64,000 nt of DNA, taken from Comamonadaceae bacterium (GTDB lineage Bacteria; Pseudomonadota; Gammaproteobacteria; Burkholderiales; Burkholderiaceae_C). The stretch spans positions 1 through 64,000 of the forward strand of contig CANJPU010000015.1 in the NCBI GenBank assembly GCA_947476285.1, written 5' to 3'. Of this stretch, positions 10,763-18,532 are shown one piece after another. Within the stretch, counting starts at the first letter, position 1. Each line of letters begins with the position of its first letter. Position numbers and translations under genes: made by a program. The notes beneath the pieces were generated by a model, which was not told the origin of the DNA, did no database searches, and was given only the letters and a program-made list of their open reading frames with translations.

Positions 10763-11443
10763 ATGCTCAAGTGCATCTCCTCCATGGCCACCCGACAGGT
10801 GCTGGCCCAGATGGCTGCCGCCTTCGAGGCTGCCAGCGGCTGCACCGTCGAAATCGAATCGCTTGGCGGCGTGGACGCGCTGCGGCGTGTGCAGTCGGGT
10901 GAGGCCTTCGATGCCGTGTTTCTGGCTGCCGATGCGATTGACCAGCTGATCGCACAAGGCCGTATTGTGCCCGGCAGCAAGCGCGATCTGATGCGCTCGC
11001 CCGTGGCGGTGGCGGTGCGCGCCGGCGCGCCGCAGCCCCACATTGGAAGCGAGCAGGCCTTGCGTGAGGCCGTGCTGGCTTGCCCCCACATTGGTTACTC
11101 CACTGGACCCAGCGGCGTGGCCTTGATGGCATTGTTCGAACGCTGGGGCATTGCGTCCGCCGTGCGCGAGCGACTCGTGCAGGCTCGGCCGGGTGTTCCG
11201 GTCGGCACGCTGCTTGCGCGTGGCGAAGTGTCGCTGGGTTTTCAGCAACTGAGCGAGTTGATGAATCTGGAAGGCATCGATCTTGTTGGCACATTGCCAG
11301 AAGCGGTGCAGATCGTCACTACTTTTTCGGCCGGCTTGTGTGCTGGCAGCGCGCAGGCAGACGCGGTGCATCGCATGCTTGCATTCATGGCCGGCCCACA
11401 GGCGCTTGATGCAAAGCGGCGTCACGGCATGGAGCCGATATGA
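10763..11443 (+). CDS. ModA-like substrate-binding-fold protein without a signal peptide
   Basis: 226 residues resembling type II periplasmic binding proteins of the molybdate group (AAFEAASGCTVEIESLGG start, FDAVFLAADAIDQLI, IGYSTGPSGVALM, and a C-terminal HRMLAFMAGPQALDAKRRHGMEP tail). Unlike ModA it has no hydrophobic export signal from any possible start (10715, 10763), so it probably stays in the cytoplasm. It is the first gene of the pmd operon, 13 bases before pmdE. The ribosome site is weak. Possible roles are ligand sensing, or an enzyme of the pathway such as an oxalomesaconate isomerase; neither is shown by the sequence. Confidence 0.7.
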   Translation: MLKCISSMATRQVLAQMAAAFEAASGCTVEIESLGGVDALRRVQSGEAFDAVFLAADAIDQLIAQGRIVPGSKRDLMRSPVAVAVRAGAPQPHIGSEQALREAVLACPHIGYSTGPSGVALMALFERWGIASAVRERLVQARPGVPVGTLLARGEVSLGFQQLSELMNLEGIDLVGTLPEAVQIVTTFSAGLCAGSAQADAVHRMLAFMAGPQALDAKRRHGMEPI

Positions 11444-11456
11444 AAGGAGTCAACGC

Positions 11457-12494
11457 ATGAGCCTCGTCATCGATTGCCACGGCCACTACACCACTGCGCC
11501 CAAGGCGCTGGAAGACTGGCGCAACAAACAGATTGCCGGCATCAAGGATACAGCGGTGCGCCCCAAGGCGTCGGATCTGAAGATCAGCGACGACGAGCTG
11601 CGCGAATCGATTGAGAGCAACCAGTTGCGCCTGATGAAGGAGCGCGGCAGCGACATCACGCTGTTCTCGCCGCGCGCGAGCTTCATGGCCCATCACATCG
11701 GCGACTTCAATGTGTCTTCCACCTGGGCCGCAATTTGCAATGAGCTGTGCTATCGGGTGAGCAAGCTCTTTCCCGATAATTTTGTGCCGGTGGCCATGCT
11801 GCCGCAGTCGCCCGGTGTCGATCCCAAGACCTGCATTCCCGAGCTGGAGCGTTGCGTCAATGAGTACGGCAATGTCGGCATCAACCTGAACCCCGACCCA
11901 TCGGGCGGCCACTGGACCAGTCCACCGCTGTCGGACAAGCATTGGTATCCGATTTACGAAAAGATGGTGCAGTACGACATCCCGGCGATGATTCATGTCA
12001 GCACCAGTTGCAACGCCTGCTTTCACACGACAGGCGCGCATTATCTGAATGCCGACACCACCGCCTTCATGCAGTGCCTCACTTCCGACCTGTTCAAGGA
12101 CTTCCCCACGCTGCGCTTTCTGATTCCGCACGGTGGCGGCGCAGTGCCCTATCACTGGGGGCGCTTTCGCGGCCTGGCGCAGGAGCTAAAAAAACCGCTG
12201 CTCACCGAGCACCTGCTCCGCAACATCTTCTTCGACACCTGCGTCTACCACCAGCCAGGCATTGATCTTCTCAACACGGTCATACCGGTGAACAACGTGC
12301 TGTTTGCTTCCGAAATGATCGGAGCGGTACGCGGCATAGACCCGGAAACCGGCCACTACTACGACGACACCCGGCGCTACATCGAGTCTTCGAAAATTCT
12401 GAGCCAGGAAGACCGGCATCAGATCTATGAGGCCAATGCGCGGCGGGTGTTTCCGCGGCTCGATGCCTTGCTCAAATCAAGGGCCGCAGCATGA
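11457..12494 (+). CDS. pmdE: 4-oxalomesaconate hydratase (LigJ/PmdE type)
   Basis: 345-residue amidohydrolase-2 family enzyme. In the protocatechuate 4,5-cleavage pathway it hydrates 4-oxalomesaconate to 4-carboxy-4-hydroxy-2-oxoadipate in the cytoplasm. The metal-binding start DCHGHYTT lies at residues 4-11, and further candidates are His in [22 protein letters not shown] and the Glu in FASEMIGAV. Length fits LigJ (about 340). An AAGGAG site 8 bases before the ATG at 11457 decides the start over an in-frame upstream start at 11283. The order E-F-D-A-B-C is that of the Comamonas pmd operon. Confidence 0.88.
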
Positions 12495-12522
12495 ATTTGC
12501 AGCGGCCACACCTGGAGACATC

Positions 12523-13206
12523 ATGAACACAATGGGCATTGTCAAACGCAACATCGTTCGCGCAGACGAGCAGGCCACCCGATCGCTGTGTCGCTTCGGT
12601 TCGGCCACAGTGCATGAGGCCATGGGCCGCGTGGGCCTGATGAAGCCGTATATGCGGCCGATCTACGCGGGCGCGCAGGTGTCCGGTACCGCAGTGACGG
12701 TGCTGCTGCATCCTGGTGACAACTGGATGATGCATGTGGTGGCTGAGCAAATTCAGCCCGGCGACATCGTGGTGGCCGCGCTCACCGCCGATTGCACCGA
12801 CGGATACTTCGGCGATCTGCTGGCCACTTCATTCATGGCGCGCGGCGCAATGGCGCTGGTGATCGACGCCGGCGCGCGCGATGTCAAGACCCTGACCGAG
12901 ATGGGCTTTCCGGTGTGGAGCAAATGCATCAGCGCCAAAGGCACGATCAAGGCCACCATCGGCTCGGTGAATGTGCCGGTGGTGTGCGCCGGTGCCTTGG
13001 TCAACCCCGGCGATGTGATCGTGGCCGATGATGACGGCGTGGTGGTGGTGCCCTCTGACTGGGCGGTGCGCACCTGCGAGGCGGCTGCCGCGCGCGAAGC
13101 CAGCGAAGGCGAGAAGCGCGCCAAGCTGGCATCGGGTGTGCTGGGCTTGGACATGTACAAGATGCGCGAGCCGCTGGAGAAGGCGGGGCTCAAGTACATC
13201 GATTGA
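12523..13206 (+). CDS. pmdF: 4-carboxy-4-hydroxy-2-oxoadipate aldolase (LigK/PmdF, RraA family)
   Basis: 227 residues, the length of LigK. It splits 4-carboxy-4-hydroxy-2-oxoadipate into pyruvate and oxaloacetate, the last step of the pathway, and usually also decarboxylates oxaloacetate. The RraA-type fold shows in [34 protein letters not shown] and the metal/substrate motif [12 protein letters not shown], with an Arg-Asp pair. GGAG lies 7 bases before the ATG at 12523; ATG at 12532 is an alternative. It starts 28 bases after pmdE. Confidence 0.92.
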
Positions 13207-13223
13207 TCGCTTTGCAGACGCCC

Positions 13224-14138
13224 ATGGAATTCAACAAAACCCCTGGCTGGCTAGACTGGTACGCCGGCCCCAGCAAGCCCCGATTCAAATTGCCCCCAGG
13301 CGCAGTCGATGCACATTGCCATGTGTTTGGACCGGGCCGCGAGTTTCCGTTCGCACCTGAGCGCAAGTACACGCCATGCGACGCCAGCAAGGATCAGCTG
13401 TTCGCGCTGCGCGACCATCTGGGGTTCGAGAAGAACGTCATCGTGCAGGCCACCTGTCATGGCGCGGACAACAGTGCGCTGCTCGATGCGCTGCGCCACG
13501 CAAAAGGCAAGGCCCGGGGCGTGGTGACGCTCAAGCGCGATGTGAGTGATGCGCAGTTGCAAGAGATGCATGCGGCCGGCGTGCGGGGTGTGCGCTTTAA
13601 CTTCGTCAAGCGCCTGGTTGACTTCACGCCCAGGGACGAGTTGATGGAGATCGCTGCGCGCATCGCTCCGCTGGGCTGGCATGTGGTGATCTATTTCGAG
13701 GCGGTTGACCTGCCGCAGCTGTGGGATTTCTTCACCGCGCTTCCCACCACGGTGGTGGTCGATCACATGGGCCGGCCTGATGTGAGTCTGCCAGTGGACG
13801 GCCCGCAGTTCGAGTTGTTCGTCAAGTTCATGCGCGAGCACCAGAATGTCTGGAGCAAGGTGAGCTGCCCCGAGCGGCTGAGCGTTGCGGGCCCGCCGGC
13901 ATTGAACGGCCAGCAGCAGGCTTACCGCGATGTCGTGCCCTTCGCCCGCCGTATCGTCGAGACCTTTCCCGATCGAGTCCTGTGGGGCACAGACTGGCCC
14001 CACCCCAATCTGAAGGACCATATGCCCGATGATGGCCTGCTGGTGGATTTCATTCCCCACATCGCCGTGACAGCGCAACTGCAACGAAAACTATTGGTGG
14101 AAAATCCCAATCGACTGTATTGGCCGCAGGAGACGTAA
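13224..14138 (+). CDS. pmdD: 2-pyrone-4,6-dicarboxylate hydrolase (LigI/PmdD)
   Basis: 304-residue amidohydrolase that opens the lactone 2-pyrone-4,6-dicarboxylate to 4-oxalomesaconate. The active-site start VDAHCHVFGPGREFPF, the VVVDHMGRPDV histidine and the C-terminal LWGTDWPHPN with its catalytic Asp are all present; unusually for the superfamily, LigI works without metal. The start could be the ATG at 13224 used here, or a TTG at 13203 that overlaps the pmdF stop; neither has a strong ribosome site. Confidence 0.92.
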   Translation: MEFNKTPGWLDWYAGPSKPRFKLPPGAVDAHCHVFGPGREFPFAPERKYTPCDASKDQLFALRDHLGFEKNVIVQATCHGADNSALLDALRHAKGKARGVVTLKRDVSDAQLQEMHAAGVRGVRFNFVKRLVDFTPRDELMEIAARIAPLGWHVVIYFEAVDLPQLWDFFTALPTTVVVDHMGRPDVSLPVDGPQFELFVKFMREHQNVWSKVSCPERLSVAGPPALNGQQQAYRDVVPFARRIVETFPDRVLWGTDWPHPNLKDHMPDDGLLVDFIPHIAVTAQLQRKLLVENPNRLYWPQET

Positions 14139-15379
<1,241 letters not shown>

Positions 15380-16330
15380 ATGAGCATCAAAGTGGCTCTG
15401 GCAGGCGCCGGCGCGTTTGGCATCAAGCATCTGGATGGCATCAAGCTCATTGAAGGTGTGGAGGTGGTGTCGCTGGTCGGCCGTGAGTTGGGCACAACCC
15501 GCGAGGTCGCCGCCAAGTACGGCATCGGGCATGTGTCGACCGACTTGGCCGACAGCCTTGCTCTGAAGGAAGTTGATGCGGTGATTCTGTGCACGCCCAC
15601 CCAGATGCATGCCGCTCAGGCCATTCAATGCATGCAGGCGGGCAAGCATGTGCAGGTGGAGATTCCGCTGGCCGACAGCCTGAAGGACGCGCATGCTGTG
15701 CTTGATATGCAGCACAAGACCGGCCTCGTCGCCATGTGCGGGCACACCCGGCGCTTCAATCCCAGCCACCAGTTCGTGCACAAGAAGATTGCCGCAGGCG
15801 AGTTCAACATCCAGCAGATGGATGTGCAGACATATTTCTTTCGCCGCAGCAACATGAATGCACTGGGCCAGCCGCGCAGTTGGACCGACCACCTGCTGTG
15901 GCACCATGCGGCCCACACAGTCGACTTGTTCGCTTGGCAATGCGCCAGTCCCATCATCAAAGCCAATGCCATGCAGGGGCCCATCCATCCGAAGCTGGGT
16001 ATCGCGATGGACATGAGCATCCAGCTGCAGGCGGCCAACGGCGCGATCTGCACCTTGTCATTGAGTTTCAACAATGATGGCCCCTTGGGCACCTTCTTTC
16101 GCTACATAGGCGACAGCGCAACTTATATTGCTCGGTACGACGACTTGTTCAACGGCAAGGAAGAAAAGATCGATGTCTCCAAGGTGGATGTGTCCATGAA
16201 CGGCATTGAGCTGCAGGACCGCGAGTTCTTCGCCGCCATCTCGCAGGGGCGCGAGCCCAATGCCAGTGTGGCGCAGGTGTTGCCGTGTTATGAGATCTTG
16301 CATCAGCTCGATCAGCAGCTTGCGGCCTAA
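15380..16330 (+). CDS. pmdC: 4-carboxy-2-hydroxymuconate-6-semialdehyde dehydrogenase (LigC/PmdC)
   Basis: 316-residue Gfo/Idh/MocA oxidoreductase. It oxidises the cyclised ring-cleavage product with NAD(P)+ to 2-pyrone-4,6-dicarboxylate, the substrate of PmdD. The Rossmann start VALAGAGAFGIKH and the VEIPLADSLKDAH (family EKP-type) motif are present, with WHHAAHTVDLFAW further on. It begins directly after the pmdB stop, completing the contiguous E-F-D-A-B-C set. Confidence 0.94.
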   Translation: MSIKVALAGAGAFGIKHLDGIKLIEGVEVVSLVGRELGTTREVAAKYGIGHVSTDLADSLALKEVDAVILCTPTQMHAAQAIQCMQAGKHVQVEIPLADSLKDAHAVLDMQHKTGLVAMCGHTRRFNPSHQFVHKKIAAGEFNIQQMDVQTYFFRRSNMNALGQPRSWTDHLLWHHAAHTVDLFAWQCASPIIKANAMQGPIHPKLGIAMDMSIQLQAANGAICTLSLSFNNDGPLGTFFRYIGDSATYIARYDDLFNGKEEKIDVSKVDVSMNGIELQDREFFAAISQGREPNASVAQVLPCYEILHQLDQQLAA

Positions 16331-16347: not shown

Positions 16348-17346
16348 ATGCAAACACGACAAATCGGCCCCTTCCAGGTCAGCGCCGTCAGCCTGGGCTG
16401 CATGAATCTCAGCCATGCCTATGGCAAACCGCCCACTCGGGAGCAAGGCGAGCGGGTGCTGCTGGCGGCATTGGACGCTGGCGTCACGATGTTCGATACC
16501 GCGGCACTCTACGGCTTTGGCGCCAATGAAACCTTGCTCGGTCAGGTGCTGGCCAGCCATCGCAGCCGCTTTACCCTGGCCAGCAAGGGCGGCATGGGTG
16601 GGGTGCAGTTCCCCGAAGGCATCCGGCGGGTCATCGACGGCAGGCCTGAATCGATTCGCAAGCACTGCGAGGACAGCCTGCGCCGCTTGCAGACGGATGT
16701 GATCGATCTGTATTACTTGCACCGCTGGGACAAGAAAGTGCCCATCGAGGACAGCGTGGGTGCCATGTCCGACTTGGTACGCGCTGGCAAGGTGCGCACG
16801 CTGGGCTTGTCGGAAGTCTCCGCCGTCACACTGCGAAAAGCCCATGCGGTGCATCCCATCGCGGCGGTGCAGTCCGAGTATTCACTCTGGACTCGCAATC
16901 CGGAGATCGCGGTGCTGCAGGCTTGCCGCGACATTGGCGCCGCCTTTGTGGCGTTCAGCCCGGTTGCGCGCGGCTTTCTGTGCGATGCGGTGCCCGATGT
17001 TTCGGTGTTTGAGCCAAAAGACATCCGCGCCGCCATGCCCAGGTTTTTTCCAGACAATTACGCGGCCAATTTGAAACTGCTGACGCCCTACAAGGCGCTC
17101 GCGCAAGAGGTGGGCTGCACGCCCGCGCAACTGGCCCTGGCCTGGCTGCTGCACAAGGCGCCGCACATCATCCCCATTCCTGGCACCACCAGCGAGACCC
17201 ATGTGCGCGAGAACCTCGCCGCCGCCGACATCCGGCTTGGCGCGGGGCTGCTGGCGCGGCTGGAGGCCTTGATCAACCACAGCACGGTGAGCGGGCATCG
17301 CTACGCTGAGCAGGGGCGTGTTGAGGTCGATACCGAAGATTTTTGA
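16348..17346 (+). CDS. Aldo/keto reductase
   Basis: 332 residues, NADPH-dependent reductase of the AKR superfamily. The barrel motifs GVTMFDTAALYGFGANE (Asp and Tyr of the catalytic tetrad), SKGGMGG with Lys, DLYYLHRWDKKVPIED with His, and a C-terminal HIIPIPGTTSETHVRENLAA cofactor segment are visible. It follows pmdC by 17 bases on the same strand and is probably the last gene of the operon. No step of the pathway requires it, so it may reduce an aldehyde such as vanillin-type precursors; that is only a guess. Confidence 0.88.
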   Translation: MQTRQIGPFQVSAVSLGCMNLSHAYGKPPTREQGERVLLAALDAGVTMFDTAALYGFGANETLLGQVLASHRSRFTLASKGGMGGVQFPEGIRRVIDGRPESIRKHCEDSLRRLQTDVIDLYYLHRWDKKVPIEDSVGAMSDLVRAGKVRTLGLSEVSAVTLRKAHAVHPIAAVQSEYSLWTRNPEIAVLQACRDIGAAFVAFSPVARGFLCDAVPDVSVFEPKDIRAAMPRFFPDNYAANLKLLTPYKALAQEVGCTPAQLALAWLLHKAPHIIPIPGTTSETHVRENLAAADIRLGAGLLARLEALINHSTVSGHRYAEQGRVEVDTEDF

Positions 17347-17366
17347 CCTGGGTTTAACGTCGCCCC

Positions 17367-17406
17367 AAAAGAGAGAACCCGCCGGCCGTTCACACGGGCA
17401 GCGGGT
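17367..17406 (-). terminator. Rho-independent terminator of the small RNA candidate
   Basis: On the minus strand, ACCCGC (17401-17406) pairs with GCGGGT (17377-17382), with an inner CCGT/ACGG pair, followed by TCTCTCTTTT down to 17367. It ends the structured RNA and lies past the stop of the aldo/keto reductase on the other strand. Confidence 0.65.
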
Positions 17407-17549
17407 CTTGGAGACCCTGGCAGGCGCAACGGCCCTTGCCAGTCAAATGGCGTCTCCATCCATCCCGGTGCATGGAGCACCGGATCCTGACCAAGCGACT
17501 TAATCCCCTGGTCATAGTGCCCGGAAACCTTCGATTTCCATCTGGGCAC
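17367..17549 (-). ncRNA. Candidate structured small RNA with FNR-type promoter
   Basis: About 183 bases with no convincing protein, between two convergent genes. Read on the minus strand the RNA would begin at the G at 17549 with hairpin 1 (GTGCCC/GGGCAC, 17517-17522 with 17544-17549, inner GGAAA/TTTCC), then hairpin 2 (TGACCA/TGGTCA, 17488-17493 with 17509-17514), hairpin 3 (CCGGTG/CACCGG, 17465-17470 with 17478-17483), a two-part hairpin 4 (GGAGAC/GTCTCC, 17410-17415 with 17452-17457; inner CTGGCA/TGCCAG) and a terminator. A -10 box and an FNR-type site are placed correctly upstream. It does not match what I know of 6S RNA, tmRNA, RNase P or SRP RNA. Confidence 0.65.
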
Positions 17550-17555
17550 GGTTTA

Positions 17556-17596
17556 ACTATAGACAAGCTCGGCTCGGGCACTTTGATCTAGATCAG
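17556..17596 (-). promoter_or_regulatory. FNR/Anr-type class II promoter
   Basis: At 17583-17596 the plus strand reads TTGATCTAGATCAG, one base off the FNR consensus TTGAT-N4-ATCAA and containing a 12-base perfect palindrome. On the minus strand a -10 box TATAGT lies at 17561-17556. The centre of the site is 40.5-41.5 bases from the predicted first base (17549/17548), the spacing of FNR-activated class II promoters. No good -35 box is needed or seen. Confidence 0.6.
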
Positions 17597-17650
17597 GAAA
17601 AACATCAGAACTTCACAGAGCAAAGTCTGTTTCAAACCATCCAGCTCGCA

Positions 17651-18532
17651 TCAGGCGGCCTGCAAGGGTGCCACACGAGCGAGGAAGTCAATCACGGCAT
17701 TGCCAAAGATATCGTTTCGATCGCCTGCCACCATGTGCGCCGCATCGGTCACGTTGACGTATTCGCTATGCGGGCAAATCGCGAGGAATTGCTGCACGCC
17801 CTCTTCAGTCAGCACGTCCGACAGGCCTCCACGTACCAGCAGCGTGGGCAGCTTGAGCTGATGGGCGCAGGCCTCCAGGCGGATGCGCCGCTCCTCCAGA
17901 TTGCGCGTGCCTGCGCGGTAGCGTGGGTCCCAGTGCCAGTGATACTTGCCCTCGGGGCCGAGGCGAATATTCTTGGCCAGGCCGTCCAGGTTGCGCGGAC
18001 GCTGACGATGGGGTTGGTAGTTGCTGATGGCCAGCGCGACTTCTTCGAGTGTGTCGAAGCCGTCAGGTCGTTGTGACATGAAGCTGTGGATTTTGCCCAC
18101 GCCCTCGGGCTCAATGCGCGGTGCCACGTCCACCAGCACCAGGGCCTTGGCATCCACATGGCGTTCGCCGGCGGCGATCAGGCTGATCACGCCGCCCATG
18201 GACGCTCCAACCAGAACCGGGTGCGGTCTGCCAAGGGCCGCCAGCACGCGCTGCAAGTCCTGGATCATGTGATCGTGGCTGTAGGCGCCATCCGATGCCC
18301 AATCTGAATCGCCATGTCCACGCGCATCGAGCGCGATGGCGTAATAACCGGCCGCACCGAGAATCTCGCCAGTGCCCTTCCAGGCATGTCGGGTCTGGCC
18401 GCCGCCGTGTTGCAGCACCACCAGAGGCCCGTCGGGATTGCCCCATGCATCACCTGCGATGCTCACACCGCCGATGCCGGAAAATGTGTGCATTGGCGCT
18501 GGCGTTCCTGGGAGTCGGGTGCGTGAGGTCAT
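17651..18532 (-). CDS. Alpha/beta hydrolase
   Basis: 293-residue serine hydrolase. The oxyanion segment VLQHGGGQ, the nucleophile elbow VGASMGGV (Ser), an Asp candidate in VRGGLSDVL and the His in TDAAHMVAGD form the triad. ALDARGHGDSDW is the usual strand-4 motif of the epoxide hydrolase/haloperoxidase group. Start is uncertain: ATG at 18532 is used, with ATG at 18493 (MHTFSG) as alternative, neither with a good ribosome site. The substrate cannot be told; peroxidase annotations of this family should not be trusted. It converges on the small RNA and protocatechuate operon. Confidence 0.85.
   Translation of the reverse strand: MTSRTRLPGTPAPMHTFSGIGGVSIAGDAWGNPDGPLVVLQHGGGQTRHAWKGTGEILGAAGYYAIALDARGHGDSDWASDGAYSHDHMIQDLQRVLAALGRPHPVLVGASMGGVISLIAAGERHVDAKALVLVDVAPRIEPEGVGKIHSFMSQRPDGFDTLEEVALAISNYQPHRQRPRNLDGLAKNIRLGPEGKYHWHWDPRYRAGTRNLEERRIRLEACAHQLKLPTLLVRGGLSDVLTEEGVQQFLAICPHSEYVNVTDAAHMVAGDRNDIFGNAVIDFLARVAPLQAA

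What the first reader, a model, noticed from the sequence alone, without database searches (positions are those of the whole stretch)
17367..17596. FNR-controlled structured small RNA candidate next to the protocatechuate operon
A 14-base FNR-type site, a -10 box TATAGT and a predicted first base at 17549 are spaced exactly as in a class II FNR promoter. The predicted transcript of about 183 bases begins with a perfect hairpin at +1, contains four separate stems with exact 6-base arms, and ends in a terminator with a T-rich tail. All parts point the same way (minus strand) in an intergenic gap between convergent genes, where no promoter is otherwise expected. I do not know an Rfam family that matches. 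It could be an oxygen-responsive regulator of aerobic catabolism such as the oxygen-requiring ring cleavage encoded next door.
Basis: partly seen in the sequence, partly recalled or inferred. Interest (0 to 1): 0.8.

Follow-up and report, generated by a model that had tools for sequence, protein, structure and literature searches.

The report
Oxygen-sensor-controlled pseudoknotted small RNA family
The window holds one member of an apparently undescribed family of folded bacterial RNAs, probably switched on when oxygen runs out, whose relatives often sit among genes for surviving without oxygen.

Summary
On the minus strand lie an FNR-type dyad (17583-17596), a -10 box (17556-17561) and a predicted transcript of about 183 nt (17549-17367) with four hairpins and an intrinsic terminator, folding 4.7 sd below shuffles. 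Rfam has no credible match. Covariance searches gave 36 distinct loci of 60 bits or more, all in Burkholderiales where named. The fold shows many compensatory changes; 25 of 27 aligned members of the larger subgroup keep a full pseudoknot (the window's subgroup does not clearly have it). An FNR-type dyad lies at the same distance from the terminator in 34 of 36 loci (control intervals: 4 and 5 of 36). Neighbours are enriched for low-oxygen stress families (CBS, Usp, BON, Host_attach, HSP20). Ten members lie within 45 nt before a gene, like a leader; eight, the window's included, face a convergent gene and should stand alone. The window's genome has two FNR-like proteins beside an island of such genes. 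Best reading: an FNR-activated structured RNA of the anoxic-persistence regulon. The tie to protocatechuate cleavage is weak: not conserved as a neighbourhood, and one chance-level pairing with ligB. Transcription and mechanism are unproven.

The parts
17583..17596 (-). FNR-type dyad CTGATCTAGATCAA
   Evidence: a dyad at the same offset from the terminator in 34 of 36 family loci
17556..17561 (-). -10 box TATAGT, 21 nt after the dyad
   Evidence: 21-23 nt in members (L028 corrected), but the script chose the best hexamer within 19-24 nt
17367..17549 (-). predicted transcript of about 183 nt
   Evidence: sequence, fold, covariance matches over 17367-17487
17517..17549 (-). hairpin H1 at the 5' end
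   Evidence: only 51% and 69% of cells paired (poorly aligned)
17489..17513 (-). hairpin H2
   Evidence: 66% of cells paired
17465..17483 (-). hairpin H3
17410..17457 (-). stem P4 (H4) with upper stem P4b
   Evidence: 100% of outer-stem cells paired in 7 members
17443..17451 (-). 9-nt internal loop of P4 (GCCATTTGA here; GACATCAGA in five of the six nearest relatives aligned; the larger subgroup has CCUCA here, one strand of the pseudoknot)
17367..17406 (-). intrinsic terminator: stem 17377-17406, T-rich tail 17367-17376

Best explanation
A free-standing, intrinsically terminated RNA of about 183 nt, transcribed from a class II FNR promoter when oxygen is low. It belongs to a family of structured RNAs (pseudoknotted in the larger subgroup) of Comamonadaceae and neighbouring Burkholderiales that is part of the anoxic-persistence (lxa-like) regulon. 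In the window no gene follows it in its direction (the next gene is convergent), so it should act in trans, by pairing through its loop segments or by holding a protein, and change expression of metabolism or persistence genes on entry into anoxia. In about ten other members the same element lies directly before a gene, mostly of a low-oxygen type, and must there also be a terminator-bearing leader. Shown by computation: conserved dyad, fold, pseudoknot (larger subgroup), terminator, gene company. Inferred: transcription, FNR control, trans action. Targets are not known.
For: Homologues found with models of the transcript's 3' part alone carry the dyad at a fixed place. Pair counts: 90.2% of cells paired against 37-52% for slid partners, 22 of 39 pairs with changes on both sides, 0 of 500 shuffles as high; window subgroup 83.9% against 36-48%, 13 of 44. 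Pseudoknot strands co-vary (UGAGG:CCUCA to UGGGG:CCCCA in L010 and L014; also L078, read). Flanks of 36 members, 114 proteins: CBS 11, Usp 7, BON 5, Host_attach 5, HSP20 5, phosphoribosyltransferase 4; none of these among the 25 listed families of 131 control proteins. Exact TTGAN6TCAA: 21 in 13 member regions of 204 kb (5 of them the RNAs' own) against 4 in 320 kb of control. Own genome: two CRP/FNR-family proteins with the FNR cysteine set and ETVSR helix (motif meaning recalled) within an island with PhaC, HemN, Host_attach, CBS and DnaJ proteins. No conserved reading frame.
Against: No transcript has been seen. The window's copy departs most in the internal loop, has no clear pseudoknot partner, and does not itself sit among low-oxygen genes. 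The family is patchy (6 of 60 genomes of the genus with strong matches). In the window subgroup one of five measures, further pair types, does not exceed shuffles (328 of 500 as high). Half-sites vary (TTGAT, TTGAC, TTGAG, TTGCG) and the own genome has 9 HTH_Crp_2 matches of 47 bits or more, so another CRP/FNR-family protein could be the activator. No significant target was found.
Confidence: 0.72

Rival explanations
1. A cis-acting leader: an FNR-driven transcription attenuator, perhaps riboswitch-like, whose pseudoknot state decides whether RNA polymerase passes the terminator into the gene behind. The window copy would be an orphan leader.
For: BON genes start 26-37 nt after the terminator in L012, L017, L020, L021, L023; phosphoribosyltransferase genes about 20 nt (L025, L026), nitroreductase genes 41 and 43 nt (L027, L033), a biotinyl-protein gene 39 nt (L043): little room for another promoter (gaps, domains). 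Pseudoknotted conserved core.
Against: Eight of 36 members, the window among them, face a convergent gene, seven within 80 nt, and keep dyad and terminator; eight more have no called gene within 350 nt downstream. No consistent antiterminator: the terminator's 5' arm pairs upstream with 6 or 7 of 7 bases in 13 of 32 folds (no shuffled control).
Confidence: 0.3
2. The RNA binds a protein (for example of the CsrA, Hfq or ProQ type, or part of the transcription or translation machinery) and acts by titration or inhibition rather than by pairing.
For: Most residues lie in helices; conserved loop residues sit in a pseudoknot in the larger subgroup; a GAUGGA linker at 17464-17458 in the window.
Against: The GGA motif of the linker is not kept in several members of the larger subgroup, for example L031 and L013. 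Nothing tested directly.
Confidence: 0.2
3. A base-pairing regulator of the neighbouring protocatechuate genes, for example of ligB.
For: Adjacency; the linker GAUGGA and the loop segment of the window's RNA can pair with GGUCGAUCCAUCG about 35-45 nt before the ligB start, -10.8 kcal/mol.
Against: At chance level for about 48 starts tested (6 of 400 shuffles, 12 of 800 random pieces, 20 of 200 by co-folding). Other lig-type starts rank 9th to 38th of 47. Ring cleavage is not among the listed neighbour families of relatives.
Confidence: 0.08
4. Not a gene of its own: a chance promoter-like site and GC-rich hairpins, or a 3' UTR of the alpha/beta hydrolase gene.
For: The hydrolase gene ends about 54 nt upstream on the same strand.
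Against: Covariation, fixed dyad-terminator distance and different neighbours in other genomes.
Confidence: 0.03

Closest known systems
FnrS of Escherichia coli and the gonococcal anaerobically induced sRNA (PMC3032703, passages seen)
   Same: sRNA with a class II FNR site (centred at -41.5 in E. coli) and an intrinsic terminator
   Different: the gonococcal RNA is described there as a 5' stem loop, an unstructured region and a terminator, cloned to +111; this one is about 183 nt and almost wholly structured, and the window stretch matches no such Rfam family
lxa locus of Burkholderia cenocepacia (PMC6127331 and PMC3759415, passages seen)
   Same: gene company: six universal stress proteins, a BON protein, a nitro/flavin reductase and heat-shock proteins raised at low oxygen
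   Different: no such RNA appears in the passages seen; in 250 genomes of the order no match lay outside the window's GTDB family, but B. cenocepacia itself was not searched by name
ncS35 of Burkholderia cenocepacia (PMC5760752, passages seen)
   Same: 166-nt sRNA with four predicted hairpins, the last a terminator, no Rfam hit, and a role in slowing metabolism
   Different: the word FNR does not occur in that text; its sequence was not at hand, so homology was not tested
Toxic small RNA, RF02278 (PMC4603805, passages seen)
   Same: small RNA family of Burkholderia with several copies
   Different: 57-92 nt there; no match here
Burkholderiales-1 motif (one table row of PMC2864571)
   Same: candidate structured RNA of Burkholderiales without an Rfam number in that table
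   Different: its sequence was not seen, so identity is neither shown nor excluded

Membership tests
FNR-activated small RNA (functional kind) | FNR-type dyad centred about 41 nt upstream of the start | tested here: met
   centre at -40.5 or -41.5 for a predicted start; dyad at the fixed offset in 34 of 36 loci
FNR-activated small RNA (functional kind) | intrinsic terminator, no conserved reading frame | tested here: met
FNR-activated small RNA (functional kind) | FNR protein encoded in the genome | tested here: met
   two CRP/FNR-family proteins with the FNR cysteine set (pattern recalled)
FNR-activated small RNA (functional kind) | induced without oxygen in an fnr-dependent way | not testable with these tools
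   needs RNA from cells
FnrS (Rfam family; its presence in Rfam is recalled) | sequence and structure match to the family model | tested here: not met
   not among the four matches up to E 10
Toxic small RNA RF02278 | sequence and structure match | tested here: not met
   window; 13 relatives, E up to 0.1
Burkholderiales-1 motif | sequence and structure match | not testable with these tools
   alignment not seen
ncS35 | sequence similarity | not tested
   sequence not at hand
Riboswitch or attenuator | lies in the 5' leader of a gene that it controls | tested here: inconclusive
   ten members within 45 nt before a same-strand gene; window and seven others convergent
Riboswitch or attenuator | two mutually exclusive structures | tested here: inconclusive
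   13 of 32, no control
Small protein gene | conserved reading frame | tested here: not met
   of 36 loci 8 have no start codon in the core, 6 stop within 10 codons, 16 stop after 16 to 192, 6 stay open beyond 200

The most novel reading that the evidence does not exclude
A new class of pseudoknotted, oxygen-regulated RNA element used both as a terminator-bearing leader of anoxia genes and, when no gene follows as in the window, as a trans-acting RNA: one fold that links attenuation and small-RNA control inside the anoxic-persistence regulon, possibly sensing a ligand or protein.
Probability: 0.3. Interest if true: 0.85.

Novelty: new variant of a known kind. Interest (0 to 1): 0.68.

Why it matters
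FNR-controlled small RNAs are known from enteric bacteria and Neisseria. In Burkholderiales, which matter in soils, groundwater and waste treatment, I found none described in the open papers searched. A conserved RNA tied by promoter and gene company to the anoxic-persistence regulon gives a concrete, testable entry point, and its double placement (leader or free) bears on how leader RNAs and small RNAs turn into one another.

Tried and rejected
Rfam at gathering threshold on the window and at relaxed thresholds on the stretch and on 13 relatives: nothing credible (among the relatives the only match was Bp2_287 in L008, 27 bits against a cut-off of 70). DNA search of phages and plasmids with 17360-17610: no match. 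Small ORF: rejected. CsrA sponge: the GGA motif is not kept throughout the larger subgroup. A pseudoknot partner for the window subgroup was sought by eye (H3 loop CUGAU with AUCAG in L004, L006, L044; H1 loop in others): inconsistent, left open. Pairing with neighbouring catabolic genes: a weak, chance-level hint at ligB only. In one search LigB was first scored at a wrong start (14411) and mended. Matches set aside before counting: L045/L080 (49 bits), L046/L081 (40 bits), L016, L047, L048, L050 (30-35 bits) and L076 (20 bits) as weak; L079, L018, L022 as no match; L008, L009, L034 and L040-L042, L049 as second names of loci already counted. L045 and L046 have a dyad at the right place and may be real; they are left out of the 36. 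Control regions reached 25.7 bits at most. Papers: the listings showed no description of this family; PMC11109978 and PMC8632094 contain none of the terms looked for, and passages of PMC3110155 did not bear on it; only open-licence papers are held. The first Pfam pass over 57 neighbours was superseded.

Full report
Check of the observation. The minus strand of 17300-17700 was read. The dyad centre is at -40.5 for a start at 17549. The fold is much more stable than shuffles. The gap is bounded by an aldo/keto reductase gene on the plus strand and an alpha/beta hydrolase gene on the minus strand. Rfam gives nothing at its thresholds and nothing credible below them.

Relatives. A DNA search of 99 genomes found 5 with a match: the own one and four of the same genus. 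All four carry an FNR-like dyad at a similar distance from the terminator, although only the 3' half or so of the query had aligned. A covariance model of the 3' part made from these five sequences (R1) found 10 of 299 genomes of the GTDB family at E 0.01 or better, the own one included, with 11 loci; one weak locus (L016) was dropped, and the nine other new loci have the same order of hairpins and a dyad. A second model, R2, was built from 14 sequences. A pattern taken from the larger subgroup was scanned over one genome for each of 84,980 species: 22 records, 20 of which are R2 matches of 75 to 97 bits, titled as Burkholderiales or Betaproteobacteria or as Hydrogenophaga, Simplicispira, Acidovorax, Rubrivivax, Variovorax, Rhodoferax or Leptothrix; the two others, an Opitutales and a Pseudomonas record, do not match R2. 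In the own genus 10 of 60 genomes match at E 0.01: 6 genomes (7 loci) at 90 bits or more, 4 at 30-49 bits. In the order 3 of 250 genomes match, all in the own family, one of them weak. A pattern search found 10 of 399 family genomes, 8 of them confirmed by R2. First looks scored only 12 to 59 candidates per genome, so these counts are lower bounds. Four genomes have two copies (G211, G044, G125, Hydrogenophaga aromaticivorans). Taken forward are 36 distinct loci with 60 bits or more; 14 of them built R2 and match by construction; 20 control regions of 16 kb reached 25.7 bits at most.

Promoter. Measured from the terminator end, a 14-mer with at least 7 of the 8 bases TTGA..TCAA lies between -245 and -215 in 34 of 36 loci, against 4 and 5 of 36 in two control intervals. 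The exceptions are L074 (TTGCGAATTCGCAA, 6 of 8, as L010) and L072 (7 of 8, at -248). The commonest form is TTGAGCATGCTCAA; TTGAT, TTGAC and TTGCG half-sites occur. A -10-like hexamer follows after 21 to 23 nt, but the script chose the best hexamer within 19-24 nt, so this spacing is weaker evidence.

Structure. Two subgroups were aligned over full length: 27 sequences of the larger one (A5) and 7 of the window's (A6). With a named structure 90.2% of 1046 cells pair in A5 and 22 of 39 pairs show changes on both sides; slid partners give 37-52%. In A6 it is 83.9% of 298 cells and 13 of 44 pairs, against 36-48%; there the number of further pair types does not exceed shuffles (328 of 500 as high), and H1 and H2 are poorly aligned. 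In the larger subgroup UGAGG just before H2 can pair with CCUCA in the internal loop of P4: 25 of 27 keep all five pairs, L033 and L011 keep four, and L010 and L014 have UGGGG with CCCCA; L078, found later, reads the same way. Three of the five pairs never vary and say nothing. In the window subgroup the loop reads GACATCAGA in five of seven, GCTTTCAGA in L043 and GCCATTTGA in the window, and no consistent partner was found.

Gene company. Up to two genes on each side within 3 kb of the 36 loci gave 114 proteins; around 40 points in 20 regions of six genomes of the family (four with strong members, one with a weak one, one with none confirmed) there were 131. Members: CBS 11, Usp 7, BON 5, Host_attach 5, HSP20 5, AAA 4, phosphoribosyltransferase 4, erythromycin esterase 3, Cpn60 3, PCMT 3, PhaC 2, nitroreductase 2, Lon 2, peptidase M41 2 (the 25 commonest of 99 families are shown). 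None of these is among the 25 of 183 families shown for the control, so each matches at most 2 of 131 there. The gene caller is crude, and close relatives among the members (L021 and L023, L025 and L026, L003 and L005) are not independent. [quoted passage not shown] PMC3759415, passages). Exact TTGAN6TCAA sites are dense there: 21 in 13 member regions (of the 18 strong-member stretches at hand the shorter L063, L064 and L074 were left out, and L076, L079, L080, L081 were not strong members), 204 kb, five of them the RNAs' own, against 4 in 320 kb of control.

Own genome. It holds 15 matches to HTH_Crp_2, 9 of them at 47 bits or more. Two, on contig 12 and about 9 kb apart, have the N-terminal CSSC..C cysteines and the ETVSR helix of FNR (that reading is from my own knowledge; domains). 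Between them lie genes with HemN-type, Host_attach, CBS, Glycos_transf_3 and DnaJ domains, and beside them PhaC and an ATP-grasp acyl-CoA ligase type, with four TTGAN6TCAA sites in the 20 kb. So the window's genome has both the presumed activator and the presumed regulon, although the RNA gene sits on another contig. The window itself has no exact TTGAN6TCAA; its dyad has one mismatch.

Free RNA or leader. In L012, L017, L020, L021 and L023 the BON gene starts 26-37 nt after the terminator, in L025 and L026 the phosphoribosyltransferase gene about 20 nt after, in L027 and L033 the nitroreductase gene 41 and at least 43 nt, in L043 a biotinyl-protein gene 39 nt (gaps, in L012, L017, L020, L026 and L027 moved from the longest frame to the conserved start; domains). 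In these ten loci the element is most simply part of the leader. By a rough recount of all 36, 20 are followed by a same-strand frame within 170 nt, 8 (the window, L063, L066, L067, L073, L075, L077, L078) by a convergent gene, seven of these within 80 nt, and 8 by no called gene within 350 nt. Three of the convergent genes are Host_attach and one CBS, so stand-alone members too lie beside low-oxygen families. For the window the free RNA is therefore the better reading.

What it does. Established knowledge says that FNR activates class II promoters when oxygen is absent. The neighbours point to anoxic persistence rather than to ring cleavage. I hold trans action most likely for the window copy but cannot choose firmly between pairing and protein binding. 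A simple scan of 47 start regions in the window gave lig-type genes middling ranks. LigB, missed there, scores best of all when added (-10.8 kcal/mol), through the RNA's GAUGGA linker and loop, but at chance level for the number of tests. After this check I raised the odds of the catabolic-target rival from 0.05 to 0.08 and left the others. Open papers searched listed no such family. Burkholderiales-1 (PMC2864571) and ncS35 (PMC5760752) could not be compared by sequence.

Noticed in passing
L117 (own genome, contig 12, 33000-52999): Two FNR-type regulators about 9 kb apart frame an lxa-like island (HemN-type, Host_attach/baeRF12, CBS, Glycos_transf_3, DnaJ; PhaC and an ATP-grasp acyl-CoA ligase type beside it) with four TTGAN6TCAA sites.
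   Followed up: partly
window 11283-16330: A protocatechuate 4,5-cleavage (lig-type) cluster with LigB and GFO/IDH/MocA-type genes ends close to the RNA gene; gene names other than LigB and the oxidoreductase are my reading.
   Followed up: partly
window 14483-14495 (+) and 17443-17464 (-): The stretch GGTCGATCCATCG before ligB can pair with the RNA's GAUGGA linker and loop; chance level, but the loop letters involved are peculiar to the window's copy.
   Followed up: partly
window 17512-17541 (-): The RNA contains a 9-codon frame from an AUG at +9 without a clear ribosome site; conservation of this frame was not tested.
   Followed up: no
family loci: Dyad half-sites differ between members (TTGAT, TTGAC, TTGAG, TTGCG) while the position is fixed, which could reflect different CRP/FNR-family activators.
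   Followed up: no
G044, G125, G211, Hydrogenophaga aromaticivorans (L023, L027): Two copies of the RNA gene in one genome.
   Followed up: no
L080 (8049-8167), L081 (8035-8129): Weak family matches (49 and 40 bits) in the same genus with dyads at the right place; possible diverged members.
   Followed up: partly
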